Below are positions 1 through 4,376 of a stretch of DNA of 42,070 nt, piece by piece. Position 1 is the stretch's first letter. Each line of letters begins with the position of its first letter. The translations under genes and the position numbers were made by a program. The notes beneath the pieces were generated by a model, which worked only from the letters and a program-made list of their open reading frames with translations, made no database searches and was not told the origin of the DNA. Source of the DNA: Candidatus Peribacteria bacterium (lineage in GTDB: Bacteria; Patescibacteriota; Gracilibacteria; UBA1369; UBA12463); assembly GCA_943354965.1 (NCBI GenBank), contig CALRDN010000011.1, positions 1 to 42,070 on the forward strand, given 5' to 3'.

Positions 1-300
1 ATCTGACGGCTTTTTCTAGAATTTCTTTGGCATAGGGTTGGTCTTTGTAATAGGGAAAGCATTCAATGACTACTCTGGGATCTTTGTCTACAGCAGATCT
101 GACGGCTTTTTCTAGAATTTCTTTGGCATAGGGTTGGTCTTTGTAGCTATCGTAGCTATAAAGGGCTAATCCGGGTGCTTTGTTTATAGCAGATCTGACG
201 GCTTTTTCTAGAATTTCTTTGGCATAGGGTTGGTCTTTGTAGCTATCGTAGCTATAAAGGGCTAATCCGGGTTCTTCGTCTACGACAGATCTGACGGCTT
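1..300 (-). repeat. 96-bp coding tandem repeats in copy 2
   Basis: Units of exactly 96 bp begin at 1, 97, 193 and 289 (marker ATCTGACGGC). The units starting at 97 and 193 are nearly identical. Each encodes 32 aa around YKDQPYAKEILEKAVRS. They are coding repeats, not CRISPR. Confidence 0.9.
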
Positions 301-712
301 TTTCTAGGAAATGGAGATATCGCGGGTTTAGTTTTGCTTCTGGGCGCTCAATACTTTTAAAAAATATTCTTGGATATTGTTCACATATGTAATCTGACAT
401 GGGATCCATTTTTCTTGCAGCAGCAAATATCTTCACTAGTTCGCTTTGCATCCACTCTCTTAGCTCCTCAGGGGTTGAAATTTTGAGCTCGGGGAAGAGT
501 TTTTTTACTTTTCCTATGGCAACGCGAAGTGCATCTTCGCGATCTTTTTGATCTTCAATAATATCTACGTCATCAAGCCACTTTTGCATAGATTCAATTT
601 TTTGTTTCAGTGCAATATATTCCTGTTGCTCTATTGATTCTTTTGGAATATTTTTCTTGGATTCCTTGGAATCTTTTGGCTGATCTATTGATTGTGGCTG
701 TTCCGGGGGCAT
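1..712 (-). CDS. Helical-repeat protein, copy 2 (3' end lies outside the window)
   Basis: Only the N-terminal ~237 residues are present; the gene runs off the left edge. It starts MPPEQPQSIDQPKDSKES, matching the start of the complete paralogue at 1126-3240 (MPLEQPKNIDQPKKSKES), which fixes the start codon. Both have a charged N-terminus, a helical stretch, the shared stretch MDPMSDYICEQYP, then repeats. Here the repeats are 32 aa (96 bp; units begin near 1, 97, 193 and 289) around the core YKDQPYAKEILEKAVRS. They are most likely alpha-helical hairpins of a solenoid (TPR/HEAT-like in style; I recognise no named family). Whether this copy carries the putative peptidase domain of its paralogue cannot be seen. 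It follows the small ORF at 722-856 by 9 bp and probably shares its promoter. Function unknown. Confidence 0.85.
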   Translation of the reverse strand, partial: MPPEQPQSIDQPKDSKESKKNIPKESIEQQEYIALKQKIESMQKWLDDVDIIEDQKDREDALRVAIGKVKKLFPELKISTPEELREWMQSELVKIFAAARKMDPMSDYICEQYPRIFFKSIERPEAKLNPRYLHFLEKAVRSVVDEEPGLALYSYDSYKDQPYAKEILEKAVRSAINKAPGLALYSYDSYKDQPYAKEILEKAVRSAVDKDPRVVIECFPYYKDQPYAKEILEKAVR

Positions 713-721
713 AGGATGAAT

Positions 722-856
722 TTAGAGAGCGTTGAGTTTTGAGAGGATCGCATCTGTTTGTGCATCTTTTTCTGTGGATTCTTTTTTGGAAGAATACTCC
801 TGCTTCGCGAGGGCGAAGAGGCGGTCGAGGAAGGTGATTTTTTGTTGAGTAGTCAT
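722..856 (-). CDS. Small ORF (44 aa) preceding helical-repeat gene, copy 2
   Basis: Encodes 44 aa beginning MTTQQKITFLDRLFALAK and ending DAILSKLNAL. It is supported by its paralogue at 3264-3419: the stretch KITFLDRLF.LAKQEY.S.KES.EKD and the C-terminus LSKLNAL are conserved between the two, and each sits immediately upstream of a helical-repeat gene. It looks like one or two short amphipathic helices, with no TM segment. The stop codon is 9 bp before the start of the downstream gene, so the two are probably co-transcribed from the TATAAT promoter at 884-889. A partner, inhibitor or chaperone of the large protein is an inference from the pairing only. Confidence 0.7.
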   Translation of the reverse strand: MTTQQKITFLDRLFALAKQEYSSKKESTEKDAQTDAILSKLNAL

Positions 857-883
857 GGGGTTTGTTTGTTTTTGTGTCTATTC

Positions 884-889
884 ATTATA
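884..889 (-). promoter_or_regulatory. -10 box (TATAAT) of module copy 2
   Basis: On the minus strand a perfect TATAAT lies 27 nt before the ATG of the small ORF. The sequence AACC(C)TCA...ATGA..TATAAT is also found at the same place in module copy 1 (3449-3454), so the promoter was duplicated with the genes. No good -35 is visible. Confidence 0.6.
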
Positions 890-916
890 CCTCATTTTTG
901 AGGGTTTTACCATAGC

Positions 917-1117
917 TCATGCTGACCTTATCAAGTGATTCTTGGCTTCAGAATCACCTCCAGGGTATTCTTCGAGAAACACCCTGCCTGCCGTCTTGAA
1001 CTTCTTCTCGGAGCGCATCAAATACCAGTTCTTCTTGAACTGAACTTGGAAGTGGAATAAATAGTAACTATGGCGTGTATCCGCACCACAGACCGCAACA
1101 GCGGTCGGATCCCGATT
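917..1117 (-). pseudogene. Conserved intergenic coding-like element A
   Basis: An open stretch of 66 codons bounded by TAG upstream and TGA downstream, with no ATG, GTG, TTG or CTG before its conserved part. It contains ADTRHSYYLFHFQVQFKK, then NWYLMRSEKKFKTAGRVFLE. Its counterpart at 3533-3709 has HSYYLFHFGVQFKKNWY and KFKTAGRVYIEEF. The differences are synonymous or conservative (FLEEY versus YIEEF; GCA/GCG; AGG/CGG), as expected of coding DNA. The DNA also has two inverted repeats: a 6-bp stem at 1091-1106 whose sequence differs from that in element B but still pairs, and an identical CAGTTC/GAACTG hairpin at 1026-1042. It may be a gene remnant, a small gene with an unusual start, or a structured RNA. 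Confidence 0.5.
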
Positions 1118-1125
1118 CTATTTTT

Positions 1126-3240
1126 TTATTCCCTCTGATACGACTTCAGAAAATTTACCCCGAGATTTTTGTCGGGAGACACATAATTAGAAAAATTTTC
1201 ATTCTTTCCGAGTTTTTTCTCCGCTTCCGTCCAGAAAGTAGACCAGGTGATATCTTTGCCAGATAAGATCGTCTCGTTGAGAGCCTTGAGAAGTGGATCG
1301 TTGACCAGCATCGTACCGGTACCTTTGGTGGAAATAATATGAGCCTTTGGTGATTTGCCGAGCACTGCAGTAACTTCATTGTACCCTCCACATGACCCCA
1401 TCCAGACTATACGGGCGATATCCGTGATGCGAGCGATAGTTTTTGCTGCGTGAAAGCTGTGCCCACGATGAACAACGACGATGGTTTTGATGTTCTTTGT
1501 TGCAAATATTTTTTGGATGTCTTCGGGTCCATCATCTTCATTTTCCGGTTTGTTGGCATACATCTCTACCGTCTTGTCTTTTTCTTTTTTGGAGATTTGA
1601 ACGTAAGAGCCACGATCTTCTATTTTCCAGTCAGATTGAGCACGATAATAGCGGAGAAAATTAGCAAAAGAGTCTTTTCCGTCATTATCGTTGTAGAAGA
1701 AGTACTGCTGGATATTTTTTCCATCGGGATTGAATAATTCTTTGGAGGCAAGAGTAGAGACATTTTCTAGCGGATATTTGACTGCCATCTGGGAAAACCA
1801 TGGATCTGCAATTTTACTGGCAGCAACACTGGCGAGTAGGCCATAGAGCTTCATTGTTTTTTGGTCTCCCGCCTTTTCTGCCTTGACGTAGGCTTCTTTG
1901 ACGAACCCACTCATGGAAGACATAAGCGCAGGATCCTTGAGGACAGAGAAGGTATCCGCAAGCGTGACGGCGTTTTTGAGACGATCTTCTGGCTTGCCGA
2001 GGTCTATTACGGAACCCCTCAGGATTTGTTGCGCTTTGGTGGGGTCCATCGTTGCGAGAAATTCGCTGAGGCGATTGTAGCTAGCACAGAGCCGCAGGAA
2101 TGTTTTTGTACCATCTCCTGACTGCATCACCTGATCACCTTTTTTTCCTTCTGCATGCATTTTTGCGAGAAATCGATTGAACAATCCATTGAATGATGAA
2201 GTTAATATTTCTCGATCTCCTTCGACTATTATGTTATAAATAGTCGAGGCAGGTATCTTGCTTGTAATTGCAAAACGGAAATCATCTTTTAGCTCATGGA
2301 GACTATTAATGATTCTAACAATCCTTAATGCTGATTTTTCCGTAAGAGTGGCAGTCGAGAAAGATAGCCCGATCTTTTCCAGAACCTCTTTGGCATATGG
2401 CTGGGATTTGTAGAGGTCGAAGATATCAAAAACTAGTCCAGGATTTTTATCTGCTACTTTTTCCAGAACCTCTTTGGCATATGGCTGGGATTTGTAGAGG
2501 TCGAAGTAATTGTTAGTAAGAGCTAATTCAGGATCACTTCTTACTGCTTTTTCCAGAATCTCTTTGGCATATGGCTGGGATTTGTAGAGGTCGAAGTGAT
2601 CAAAAACTGATGCAGGATTTTTGTCTGCGACATTTCTTACTACTTTTTCTAGAATCTTTTTGGCATAGGGCTGGGATTTGTAGAGGTAGATACATCCAAG
2701 AGCGTATCCAGGTTCTTTGTCTGATGCTTTTTCCAGAACCTCTTTGGCATATGGCTGGGATTTGTAGAGGTCGGAGTAACTAAGAGCTAATTCAGGATTT
2801 ATGTCTGCAGCACTTCTGGCAGCTTTTTCCAGAAATTTTAAATACTTTTCATTTCGTCCGCTCTCCGGATGTTCGGCAATAAATTTGAGAAATTTTCCCG
2901 GGTATTGTTCGCATATATAATCGGACATGGGATCCATCGTATCGGCTTTCTCGTCGAGCTCTTTTAGTTCCTTCTGTATCCATTCGATGAGTTTGGGAGG
3001 GTCTTGGATTTTGAGTTCAGGTATGAGTTTTTTTAATTTTTCTGTAGCAGTGCGGAGAGCATCTTCGCGGGATTTGCGGTCTTCTTTATTTTCTGAGTTT
3101 GTCAGCCATTTGAAGATCATGGCTGCTTTTTGCTTCAAGACAAGAATATTTTCTTTCTCGGTTGATTCCTCGGGGGTCTTATGAGCAGACTCTTTTGATT
3201 TTTTTGGTTGGTCGATATTTTTTGGCTGTTCGAGAGGCAT
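1126..3240 (-). CDS. Helical-repeat protein with C-terminal caspase-like (clan CD-like) domain, copy 1
   Basis: A complete 704-aa protein without signal peptide or TM segment. Residues 1-60 are charged. About residues 140-300 hold five repeats of 28-32 aa with the core LYKSQPYAKEVLEK, probably a helical solenoid. A helical middle region follows. The last ~160 residues form an alpha/beta region in which strand-like KTIVVVHRGHS (His594) is followed by a helix and strand-like IVWMGSCGGYNE (Cys617). A His after a hydrophobic strand and a Cys after the next one is the layout of clan CD peptidases (caspase, CHAT, gingipain), though the 23-residue spacing is short. Peptidase activity is inference. 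It follows the small ORF at 3264-3419 by 23 bp. Its partial paralogue lies downstream at 1-712. Confidence 0.85.
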   Translation of the reverse strand: MPLEQPKNIDQPKKSKESAHKTPEESTEKENILVLKQKAAMIFKWLTNSENKEDRKSREDALRTATEKLKKLIPELKIQDPPKLIEWIQKELKELDEKADTMDPMSDYICEQYPGKFLKFIAEHPESGRNEKYLKFLEKAARSAADINPELALSYSDLYKSQPYAKEVLEKASDKEPGYALGCIYLYKSQPYAKKILEKVVRNVADKNPASVFDHFDLYKSQPYAKEILEKAVRSDPELALTNNYFDLYKSQPYAKEVLEKVADKNPGLVFDIFDLYKSQPYAKEVLEKIGLSFSTATLTEKSALRIVRIINSLHELKDDFRFAITSKIPASTIYNIIVEGDREILTSSFNGLFNRFLAKMHAEGKKGDQVMQSGDGTKTFLRLCASYNRLSEFLATMDPTKAQQILRGSVIDLGKPEDRLKNAVTLADTFSVLKDPALMSSMSGFVKEAYVKAEKAGDQKTMKLYGLLASVAASKIADPWFSQMAVKYPLENVSTLASKELFNPDGKNIQQYFFYNDNDGKDSFANFLRYYRAQSDWKIEDRGSYVQISKKEKDKTVEMYANKPENEDDGPEDIQKIFATKNIKTIVVVHRGHSFHAAKTIARITDIARIVWMGSCGGYNEVTAVLGKSPKAHIISTKGTGTMLVNDPLLKALNETILSGKDITWSTFWTEAEKKLGKNENFSNYVSPDKNLGVNFLKSYQRE
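2370..2830 (-). repeat. 84-96-bp coding repeats in copy 1
   Basis: Five units sharing the plus-strand block CTTTGGCATATGGCTGGGAT followed by TTGTAGAGGTC. They encode LYKSQPYAKEVLEK-type segments of 28, 30 or 32 residues. Copies within this gene are more alike than to those at 1-300. Confidence 0.85.
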
Positions 3241-3263
3241 ATGAGGGCTGGTTAGAGCCTAAT

Positions 3264-3419
3264 TTAGAGTGCATTGAGTTTAGAGAGAGCAGCATCTACT
3301 TGAAAATCCTTTTCTTTGGATTCCTTGTTGGAGGCATATTCTTGTTTGGCGAGCTTGAAGAGACGATCAAGGAAGGTGATTTTTTCCACAAGGGATGCTC
3401 CGGTATGCTTGGGGGTCAT
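3264..3419 (-). CDS. Small ORF (51 aa) preceding helical-repeat gene, copy 1
   Basis: Encodes 51 aa: MTPKHTGASLVEKITFLDRL, a helical middle, and the C-terminus LSKLNAL. It aligns end to end with the 44-aa product at 722-856 apart from 7 extra residues near the N-terminus, and holds the same position ahead of a helical-repeat gene. Conservation of this pair after divergence of the copies suggests it is translated. No Shine-Dalgarno is seen; a TATAAT box at 3449-3454 gives a leader of roughly 20 nt. Function unknown; a partner of the downstream protein is the simplest guess. Confidence 0.7.
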   Translation of the reverse strand: MTPKHTGASLVEKITFLDRLFKLAKQEYASNKESKEKDFQVDAALSKLNAL

Positions 3420-3448
3420 AGAAGTTTTGTTAGTTTTTGCTTCTTTGA

Positions 3449-3454
3449 ATTATA
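3449..3454 (-). promoter_or_regulatory. -10 box (TATAAT) of module copy 1
   Basis: Perfect TATAAT on the minus strand, 29 nt before the small ORF ATG, in the same context as the box at 884-889. It separates this module from the element at 3533-3709, which therefore lies upstream of the promoter and is not part of the module mRNA. Confidence 0.6.
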
Positions 3455-3532
3455 TCATAATTCTGAGGTTTTTGCTATGCATGGTTCATGCATGCTCCTG
3501 GGGAAGTAGGTAGCTTCAAAAACTACCTTCCT

Positions 3533-3709
3533 TCAAGAGAATTCCTCAATATACACCCGCCCCGCCGTCTTGAACTTCCTGTCTTTCGGGCTTACATACC
3601 AGTTCTTCTTGAACTGAACTCCGAAGTGGAATAAATAGTAACTATGGCGCGCATCCGCACCACAGACACTGAAGGTGTCGGATTCCAATTCCGTTCTGGA
3701 TTTTGACCA
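3533..3709 (-). pseudogene. Conserved intergenic coding-like element B
   Basis: An open stretch of 58 codons between a TAG (3710-3712) and a TGA (3533-3535). It contains CGADARHSYYLFHFGVQFKK followed by NWYVSPKDRKFKTAGRVYIE, matching element A at 917-1117. A TTG eight codons in is the only possible start before the conserved part, and element A lacks it. The inverted repeat at 3665-3679 (GACAC...GTGTC) replaces the GACCGC...GCGGTC of element A, so pairing but not sequence is kept; the loop region differs by 1 nt, so this hairpin is not itself coding. The CAGTTC/GAACTG hairpin at 3600-3616 is identical. Unnamed; the duplication unit appears to be element + promoter + small ORF + large gene. 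Confidence 0.5.
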
Positions 3710-3743
3710 CTACTGCTGTATTACTTAGCGCCTCAATTAGGCT

Positions 3744-4244
3744 CTACAGCCTTCCTAATACCTCCCTCAGTTCATCTCCCGTGCTATTTGCTACTTTCAT
3801 TACAGGAGTTGCGGATTTTCTCTTCAGATCATCAATTTTATCAAGAAGCGCTATCACTAAGGGCATATCGGCACTCTTATCCGTTAAGAACGTCCCATTT
3901 AAAGATACTTTGCCCAATGGGGAAAGTGTATGAAACGAGAGCTGCGTTAATTTATCTCCCTGTCCTGTAGCACGGCTAACCATAATTTCAATTCTCTCCA
4001 GATTCTTCCTCGCTTCCTGGTCACCGCGTGGACCCGTTATAGTTCTCAATTTTATCTTCACGCCATCCCCCATCACGGTTTCATCAACTGCGCACAATGC
4101 TCTCATGCGTGGAGCGACGATAGCTGTTGCACGAAGCACGGATGCCTCAAGCTCTATCTGGGCAGGTGTTTGATGGACTTCCATGCGGCTTTCACCGCTA
4201 TCTTGATGACCATCGTTGAGGCCGGATTGAGATGGGTTTAACAT
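3744..4244 (-). CDS. Hypothetical protein (166 aa)
   Basis: A 166-aa soluble protein starting MLNPSQSGLNDGHQDSGES. The first ~25 residues look disordered. The rest mixes helices and strands (LRTITGPRGDQEARKNLERI; LSFHTLSPLGKVSLNGTFL) and ends in a helix (ELREVLGRL). No catalytic motif, signal peptide or TM segment is seen, and I do not recognise the family. It lies upstream of the duplicated module, separated from it by element B and a promoter, so it is probably a separate transcript that reads into element B. An AT-rich stretch (4245-4340) lies upstream. Confidence 0.65.
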   Translation of the reverse strand: MLNPSQSGLNDGHQDSGESRMEVHQTPAQIELEASVLRATAIVAPRMRALCAVDETVMGDGVKIKLRTITGPRGDQEARKNLERIEIMVSRATGQGDKLTQLSFHTLSPLGKVSLNGTFLTDKSADMPLVIALLDKIDDLKRKSATPVMKVANSTGDELREVLGRL

Positions 4245-4376
4245 AGAATATTTGGTTATATTGAGCTAATTTTTATATTGTTATTATAAACTATATTCGA
4301 TAATTTTGCAAGTTTCTTGAATTTGACTTATTCTTTTAATTATGTTTAAATGAGTATCCACTTAATATACACTTCT

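What the first reader, a model, noticed from the sequence alone, without database searches (positions are those of the whole stretch)
1..3712. Tandemly duplicated module: intergenic element + promoter + small ORF + helical-repeat protein
The same four-part order occurs twice on the minus strand: a conserved coding-like element, a TATAAT promoter in matching context, a 44/51-aa small ORF, and a long helical-repeat protein. Both proteins have diverged in sequence but not in layout, so the unit seems to be kept as a unit. I know of no named system with this composition. Duplication and repeat expansion suggest a fast-evolving interaction surface, for example conflict, surface recognition or regulated proteolysis.
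Basis: partly seen in the sequence, partly recalled or inferred. Interest (0 to 1): 0.72.

Follow-up and report, generated by a model that had tools for sequence, protein, structure and literature searches.

The report
Tandem mobile cassettes at tRNA-Leu
The repeated stretch is a pair of mobile gene cassettes stacked behind a leucine tRNA gene in a tiny uncultured bacterium; the puzzling 'coding-like element' at each boundary is the cut-off tail of the DNA-integrating enzyme, whose own gene is cut whenever such an element inserts.

Summary
The layout is real, but 'local tandem duplication' is not the best reading. The block between window ~4250 and contig C10:~1700 is absent in two genus-mates, where rnc-side genes abut tRNA-Leu(CAG). 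It consists of two cassettes (promoter, 44/51-aa ORF, large protein) stacked at the tRNA 3' end. Cassette 2 is a recent arrival: dS 0.008 to its copy in a sister species, against dS 0.99 for rnc. The 'coding-like element' is the severed 3' end of a large serine recombinase gene. In five genomes the recombinase body overlaps a tRNA 3' end and its displaced tail lies at the island's far end, joined in frame at a shared GGT (antisense of tRNA ACCA). All 10 recombinases examined run antisense into a tRNA. Two islands with intact pairs carry restriction-modification cargo. So window elements A and B are attachment scars, not part of the two-gene module. The cargo pair is under purifying selection; the large protein combines helical repeats with a C-terminal domain holding invariant HRGHS...GSCGG. 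It is probably a conflict or defence effector; a caspase/CHAT identity was tested and not supported. Precedents: archaeal suicidal integrases and Dehalococcoides ssrA islands. New variant of a known kind.

The parts
2..712 (-). Cassette 2 large helical-repeat protein, N-terminal part (continues at G000:C10:3-1652; C-terminal domain with HRGHS/GSCGG there)
   Evidence: ORF; continuation; 100% DNA identity over its first 411 nt to the sister-species copy
722..856 (-). Cassette 2 small ORF, 44 aa, ends 9 nt before the large gene
   Evidence: identical DNA in G003; dN/dS 0.11 against the 51-aa ORF
884..889 (-). -10-like box TATAAT of cassette 2
   Evidence: sequence
917..1087 (-). Element B: severed C-terminal tail of a large serine recombinase gene (GADTRHSYYLFHFQVQFKKNWYLMRSEKKFKTAGRVFLEEYPGGDSEAKNHLIRSA*)
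   Evidence: homologous, in frame, to tails displaced from recombinases in five genomes
1080..1089 (+). TCCGCACCAC, repeat of the tRNA-Leu(CAG) 3' end; att-core-like boundary between cassettes 1 and 2
   Evidence: same 10-mer at tRNA-Leu (C10:1710) and at element A
1091..1106 (-). Hairpin GACCGC-TGTT-GCGGTC directly beyond the core
   Evidence: sequence
1126..3240 (-). Cassette 1 large protein, 704 aa: low-confidence N-terminus, helical repeats (~130-300), helical middle, alpha/beta C-terminal domain (~505-704)
   Evidence: AF2 model pLDDT 82.8; no Pfam/NCBIfam/PADLOC family
1390..1470 (-). Codons of His591 (1468-1470) to Cys617 (1390-1392), invariant HRGHS and GSCGG motifs
   Evidence: invariant in 7 full-length homologues; His and Cys columns invariant in 15 C-terminal domains
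3264..3419 (-). Cassette 1 small ORF, 51 aa
   Evidence: dN/dS; divergent relative upstream of the G003 paralogue
3449..3454 (-). -10-like box TATAAT of cassette 1
   Evidence: sequence
3533..3661 (-). Element A: severed recombinase tail (GADARHSYYLFHFGVQFKKNWYVSPKDRKFKTAGRVYIEEFS*)
3654..3663 (+). TCCGCACCAC tRNA-Leu 3'-end repeat, distal boundary of cassette 1
3665..3679 (-). Hairpin GACAC...GTGTC beyond the core
   Evidence: sequence
3744..4244 (-). 166-aa accessory gene of the island; relative (155 aa) at the same place in G003; no known family
   Evidence: absent from the empty site of G001
4245..4323 (.). Distal edge of the island; homology to the empty site of G001 resumes at 4323

Best explanation
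Window 1-~4250 is the distal part of a composite genomic island at the 3' end of tRNA-Leu(CAG). SHOWN: the island is absent in sister genomes. It contains two cassettes bounded by repeats of the tRNA 3' end. Each boundary carries the cut-off 3' end of a large serine recombinase gene. Relatives keep the matching recombinase bodies overlapping tRNA 3' ends, with the tail displaced to the far end of the island. INFERRED: the attachment site lies inside the recombinase gene, so the circular element encodes the full enzyme, and integration exchanges its last ~40-55 codons for antisense-tRNA codons. The severed tail then stays as the distal attachment scar. In this genome the recombinase bodies are gone and the cassettes are non-autonomous, probably moved in trans or by homologous recombination between scars. 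INFERRED, less certain: the two-gene cargo (small coupled protein plus helical-repeat protein with a conserved His/Cys domain) is a conflict or defence unit. In that model the repeats sense or bind, the C-terminal domain is the effector, and the small protein is its partner, chaperone or inhibitor.
For: Empty sites in G001 and G004 at tRNA-Leu. tRNA 3'-end 10-mer at both elements and at the tRNA. Recombinase PF00239+PF07508 at tRNA-Leu in G003 ending ..GDS|GADERT*, elements reading GAD-ARHSYY.. in the same frame. Five body/tail pairs (tRNA-Leu-CAG, Leu-CAA, Met, Tyr, Ile) with a common in-frame GGT. A fused body+tail profile finds bodies and tails separately but no contiguous gene in 380 genomes. 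10 of 10 recombinases overlap a tRNA antisense. Tails have dN below dS. Cassette 2 dS 0.008 against rnc dS 0.99 between the same genomes. Restriction-modification cargo in G060 and G094; SoFic and helicase genes beside an orphan tail in G059. Small ORF and large domain under purifying selection. Family patchy: 2 of 5 genus genomes, 3 of 380 phylum genomes.
Against: No circular form and no unsplit recombinase gene has been seen. No recombinase of this family is left in G000, so how its cassettes moved is not shown. The defence role of this cargo is association only: the large protein matches no defence model, and G002 carries efflux and copper genes at the same site. The profile comparison with CHAT is not significant and fold searches give weak Ras-like hits. 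C10-C11 adjacency is inferred from the split gene.
Confidence: 0.74

Rival explanations
1. Local tandem duplication: one four-part module duplicated in this lineage and then diverged, with the intergenic element as a functional part.
For: Same order twice; 77-81% DNA identity between copies.
Against: Cassette 2 is 99-100% identical to the sister species' cassette at dS 0.008 against core dS 0.99, so it moved horizontally after the two copies diverged. Boundaries are tRNA-end repeats with recombinase tails. The element also occurs without the pair.
Confidence: 0.08
2. The element is a cis-acting RNA or an independent small gene that regulates the small ORF and large protein.
For: It sits directly upstream of the promoter in both cassettes and is conserved.
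Against: No Rfam match. Substitutions favour third codon positions and dN is below dS. It equals the displaced recombinase tail in frame in five genomes. Orphan copies lie beside unrelated genes.
Confidence: 0.06
3. The cargo pair is not defence but a cell-surface, predation, host-interaction or regulated-proteolysis unit that happens to ride on the element.
For: Some distant homologues have hydrophobic N-terminal segments (L009, L014). G002 carries efflux/copper genes at the same site. Azospirillum homologues sit among metabolic genes.
Against: Body/tail-bounded islands elsewhere carry restriction-modification systems; distribution is patchy and mobile.
Confidence: 0.35
4. Cassettes spread by natural transformation and homologous recombination between the tail repeats rather than by the recombinase in trans.
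For: No recombinase of the family in G000. Tail repeats are 80-90% alike. Identity between G000 and G003 ends just after the large gene's stop and drops within the upstream tail (93%).
Against: Boundaries coincide with the tRNA-Leu attachment core.
Confidence: 0.4

Closest known systems
Archaeal SSV-type ('suicidal') integrase elements (review PMC8371274)
   Same: Attachment site lies inside the integrase gene; integration at tRNA genes splits the gene and leaves fragments at the two ends; tandem fossil fragments remain.
   Different: Those are tyrosine recombinases of archaea, with the catalytic domain separated. Here it is a bacterial large serine recombinase that loses only its last ~40-55 codons. 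The 2021 review states that self-disrupting recombinases are found only in archaea.
Dehalococcoides ssrA genomic islands with DsiB serine recombinase (McMurdie 2011, PMC3146451)
   Same: Serine recombinase whose 3' end overlaps attL and takes its stop from outside; tandem islands; islands without recombinase; the authors suggested a 3' fragment might complete the gene on the circle or from an adjacent island.
   Different: Target there is the tmRNA gene, with a second recombinase DsiA. Here targets are many tRNAs, no second recombinase was seen, and the displaced 3' fragment is identified as a conserved coding tail in five pairs.
Staphylococcal SCC composite islands (ccr serine recombinases)
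   Same: Tandem accretion of units, some without recombinase, at one site (from established knowledge and PMC3146451).
   Different: SCC inserts in a protein gene and no tail swap is described there to my knowledge.
TPR-CHAT / Csx29 caspase-like proteases (PMC9729208, PMC10028731)
   Same: Helical repeats followed by an alpha/beta domain with His then Cys after successive strands.
   Different: No HMM, profile-profile or fold support for membership; His-Cys spacing is 26 residues here; no gRAMP/Cas7-11 partner.

Membership tests
Archaeal suicidal (SSV-type) integrase | Attachment site inside the integrase ORF, gene split by integration | tested here: met
   Five body/tail pairs with common in-frame GGT
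Archaeal suicidal (SSV-type) integrase | Insertion at the 3' part of tRNA genes | tested here: met
   10 of 10 recombinases overlap a tRNA 3' end
Archaeal suicidal (SSV-type) integrase | Tyrosine recombinase | tested here: not met
   PF00239 Resolvase and PF07508 Recombinase
Archaeal suicidal (SSV-type) integrase | Integration inactivates the enzyme | not testable with these tools
   Only the C-terminal tail is exchanged; activity unknown
[quoted passage not shown]
   compare PMC3146451
Dehalococcoides ssrA-GI / DsiB type | Target is ssrA (tmRNA) | tested here: not met
   Targets are tRNA-Leu, Met, Tyr, Ile, Thr, Cys, Lys
Dehalococcoides ssrA-GI / DsiB type | Second small serine recombinase beside the first | tested here: not met
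   None in the ORF lists upstream of the recombinase in G003 and G060, by inspection
Dehalococcoides ssrA-GI / DsiB type | Tandem islands, some without recombinase | tested here: met
   G000 cassettes lack any recombinase body
CHAT / caspase clan (large protein C-terminus) | Significant HMM or profile match | tested here: not met
   Pfam; hhalign probability about 1% though the GSCGG/SACE motifs align
CHAT / caspase clan (large protein C-terminus) | Fold match to clan CD peptidases | tested here: not met
   Listed Foldseek hits are helical-repeat proteins or Ras-like GTPases, TM about 0.3-0.5
CHAT / caspase clan (large protein C-terminus) | Conserved His and Cys after consecutive beta strands | tested here: met
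   His and Cys columns invariant; strand positions in the models
Toxin-antitoxin-like pair | Small gene coupled upstream of the effector gene | tested here: met
   All four large genes in the genus have it, one with a stop-start overlap
Toxin-antitoxin-like pair | Toxicity of one partner neutralised by the other | not testable with these tools
   needs expression experiments

The most novel reading that the evidence does not exclude
Patescibacteria carry a widespread class of tRNA-targeting elements whose large serine recombinase has its attachment site inside its own gene. Integration swaps the enzyme's C-terminal tail for an antisense-tRNA tail, acting as an integration-dependent switch. The severed tails left behind form a readable record of successive cassette insertions that often bring defence genes, including a previously undescribed two-gene system with a His/Cys effector.
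Probability: 0.5. Interest if true: 0.76.

Novelty: new variant of a known kind. Interest (0 to 1): 0.63.

Why it matters
A 2021 review holds that self-disrupting integrases are confined to archaea; these genomes show a bacterial serine-recombinase counterpart, with the displaced 3' fragment identified across five tRNA targets. The conserved tail is a simple sequence marker for finding otherwise invisible mobile cassettes, including candidate defence genes, in reduced Patescibacteria genomes. It also makes a clear mechanistic question testable: does loss of the tail lock the element in place?

Tried and rejected
RNA element: no Rfam family. Element as part of a conserved module: rejected because copies occur without it. 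Small ORF as an obligate partner of the large family: rejected outside the genus; weak hits in G078, G075 and G030 are chance-like, and the two inspected (G078, G075) are not next to a large protein. Large-protein family in known libraries: none in Pfam, NCBIfam or PADLOC. CHAT/caspase membership: not supported, although the active-site-like motif pattern keeps the idea alive. Viral contigs hold no relative of the large protein or of the recombinase; phage records were searched with the large protein only, also without a match. Tyrosine integrases exist in all five genus genomes, were not seen near the island, and were not pursued. A first structure job was interrupted and rerun. The large protein has homologues on Azospirillum megaplasmids, so it is not confined to Patescibacteria.

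Full report
CHECK. The four-part order is present twice on the minus strand as described. The second large gene leaves the window and resumes at the start of contig C10, where it ends 50 nt before tRNA-Leu(CAG). There are therefore two copies, and the contig break lies in the ~96-bp coding repeat. Both small ORFs are real: dN 0.15, dS 1.35 between copies; the large C-terminal domain has dN 0.10, dS 0.83.

THE ISLAND. In genus-mates G001 and G004 the genes next to rnc lie directly beside tRNA-Leu(CAG), with nothing between but a short spacer. In the window's genome the same place holds the 166-aa gene and the two cassettes. In G003 it holds one cassette plus a recombinase element; in G002 efflux and copper genes with a copy of the element. 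This is a tRNA-Leu insertion hot spot. Cassette 2 and the G003 cassette are 99-100% identical in promoter region, small ORF and most of the large gene, with dS 0.008, whereas rnc of the same two genomes has dS 0.99. Cassette 2 was thus exchanged between species recently, long after the two tandem cassettes diverged.

THE ELEMENT. Each element begins with GTGGTGCGGAT, the complement of the tRNA-Leu 3' end ATCCGCACCAC, and continues as an open frame with dN below dS. In G003 a 556-aa large serine recombinase (PF00239, PF07508) runs into the tRNA from the antisense side and ends ..NEGDS-GAD-ERT*. The elements read GAD-ARHSYYLFHFGVQFKKNWYV.. in the same frame. The element is therefore what would follow in the recombinase gene if the island were closed into a circle. 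Independent pairs of recombinase body at a tRNA and homologous tail at the far end of the island were found in G060 (tRNA-Leu CAA), G011 (tRNA-Met), G008 (tRNA-Tyr) and G094 (tRNA-Ile). All five share an in-frame GGT codon at the junction, which is the complement of the tRNA ACCA end. A profile of body plus tail, run over 380 genomes of the phylum, found bodies and tails but never a joined gene. All 10 distinct recombinases inspected overlap a tRNA 3' end, on eight different tRNA types. Elements A and B of the window are thus attachment scars; their recombinase bodies are not present in this genome.

CARGO. In G060 the island between body and tail carries an EcoRII-type restriction enzyme, a C5 methyltransferase and Vsr. 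In G094 it carries a type III restriction-modification system. Beside an orphan tail in G059 lie a SoFic-like Fic protein and a helicase. This makes a defence or conflict role for the window's two-gene cassette plausible but not shown. The large protein has a low-confidence N-terminus, ~30-residue helical repeats, a helical middle and a 200-residue alpha/beta domain predicted with good confidence. That domain holds invariant HRGHS and GSCGG motifs, with His and Cys columns invariant in 15 sequences including Azospirillum homologues. The layout recalls a Cys-His hydrolase, but CHAT/caspase membership failed by HMM, profile comparison and fold search. The family is sparse: 2 of 5 genomes of the genus, 17 of 99 relatives with any match (about nine beyond the repeats), 3 of 380 in the phylum.

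SMALL ORF. It precedes all four large genes known in the genus, including a divergent paralogue in G003 whose small ORF overlaps the large gene's start. It is not found next to the more distant homologues examined. It is most likely a translationally coupled partner, chaperone or inhibitor.

KNOWN RELATIVES. Archaeal suicidal integrases split their own gene at tRNA sites and are described as exclusively archaeal (PMC8371274). Dehalococcoides ssrA islands have a serine recombinase overlapping attL, tandem arrays and recombinase-less units; their authors speculated about a completing 3' fragment (PMC3146451). The present case combines both: serine recombinase, many tRNA targets, and a displaced 3' coding tail that can be recognised by homology. 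Literature searching was limited to open-access papers, so an unseen description is possible.

LIMITS. No circular form, no unsplit gene and no activity data are available. The host belongs to the order of a record titled Candidatus Peregrinibacteria (L012 and G082 are the same sequence). C10-C11 adjacency rests on the shared split gene, the 33-nt shared end and synteny with G001.

Noticed in passing
L110:8494-8679; L041:86-292; L077:11203-11385: A conserved ~61-aa gene (..YPEENPxxxIDDITxxxxHIGxFxGI..) lies just upstream of the recombinase in G060 and G003, and beside the tail in G002 in the opposite orientation; candidate directionality factor.
   Followed up: partly
L042:1255-4403: Divergent 995-aa paralogue with its own small ORF in G003, on a 4.5-kb contig next to a sugar transferase gene; no recombinase tail seen there.
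   Followed up: partly
L008:4096-4125 (G000:C1:124095-124124): A 30-nt hairpin almost identical to the one beyond element B lies between sufC and an Rrf2-type regulator; probably a repeated terminator.
   Followed up: no
L010:920-3034 and L011:100-2571: Homologues of the large protein that read through only with TGA=Gly (table 25), so the family crosses genetic codes.
   Followed up: partly
L052:5440-7215 and L053:5296-7320: Azospirillum megaplasmids carry shorter relatives of the large protein, annotated hypothetical, in conserved neighbourhoods (DUF1194, LysE).
   Followed up: partly
L125:10145-10264, L127:6296-6415, L128:5990-6109: Orphan recombinase tails without a detectable recombinase body nearby: likely fossils of lost insertions.
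   Followed up: partly
L124:6398-7078: A trypsin-like protease gene sits between the two genes of the type III restriction-modification system inside the G094 island.
   Followed up: no
window:3744-4244: The 166-aa island gene has no family match but a relative in the same place in G003.
   Followed up: partly
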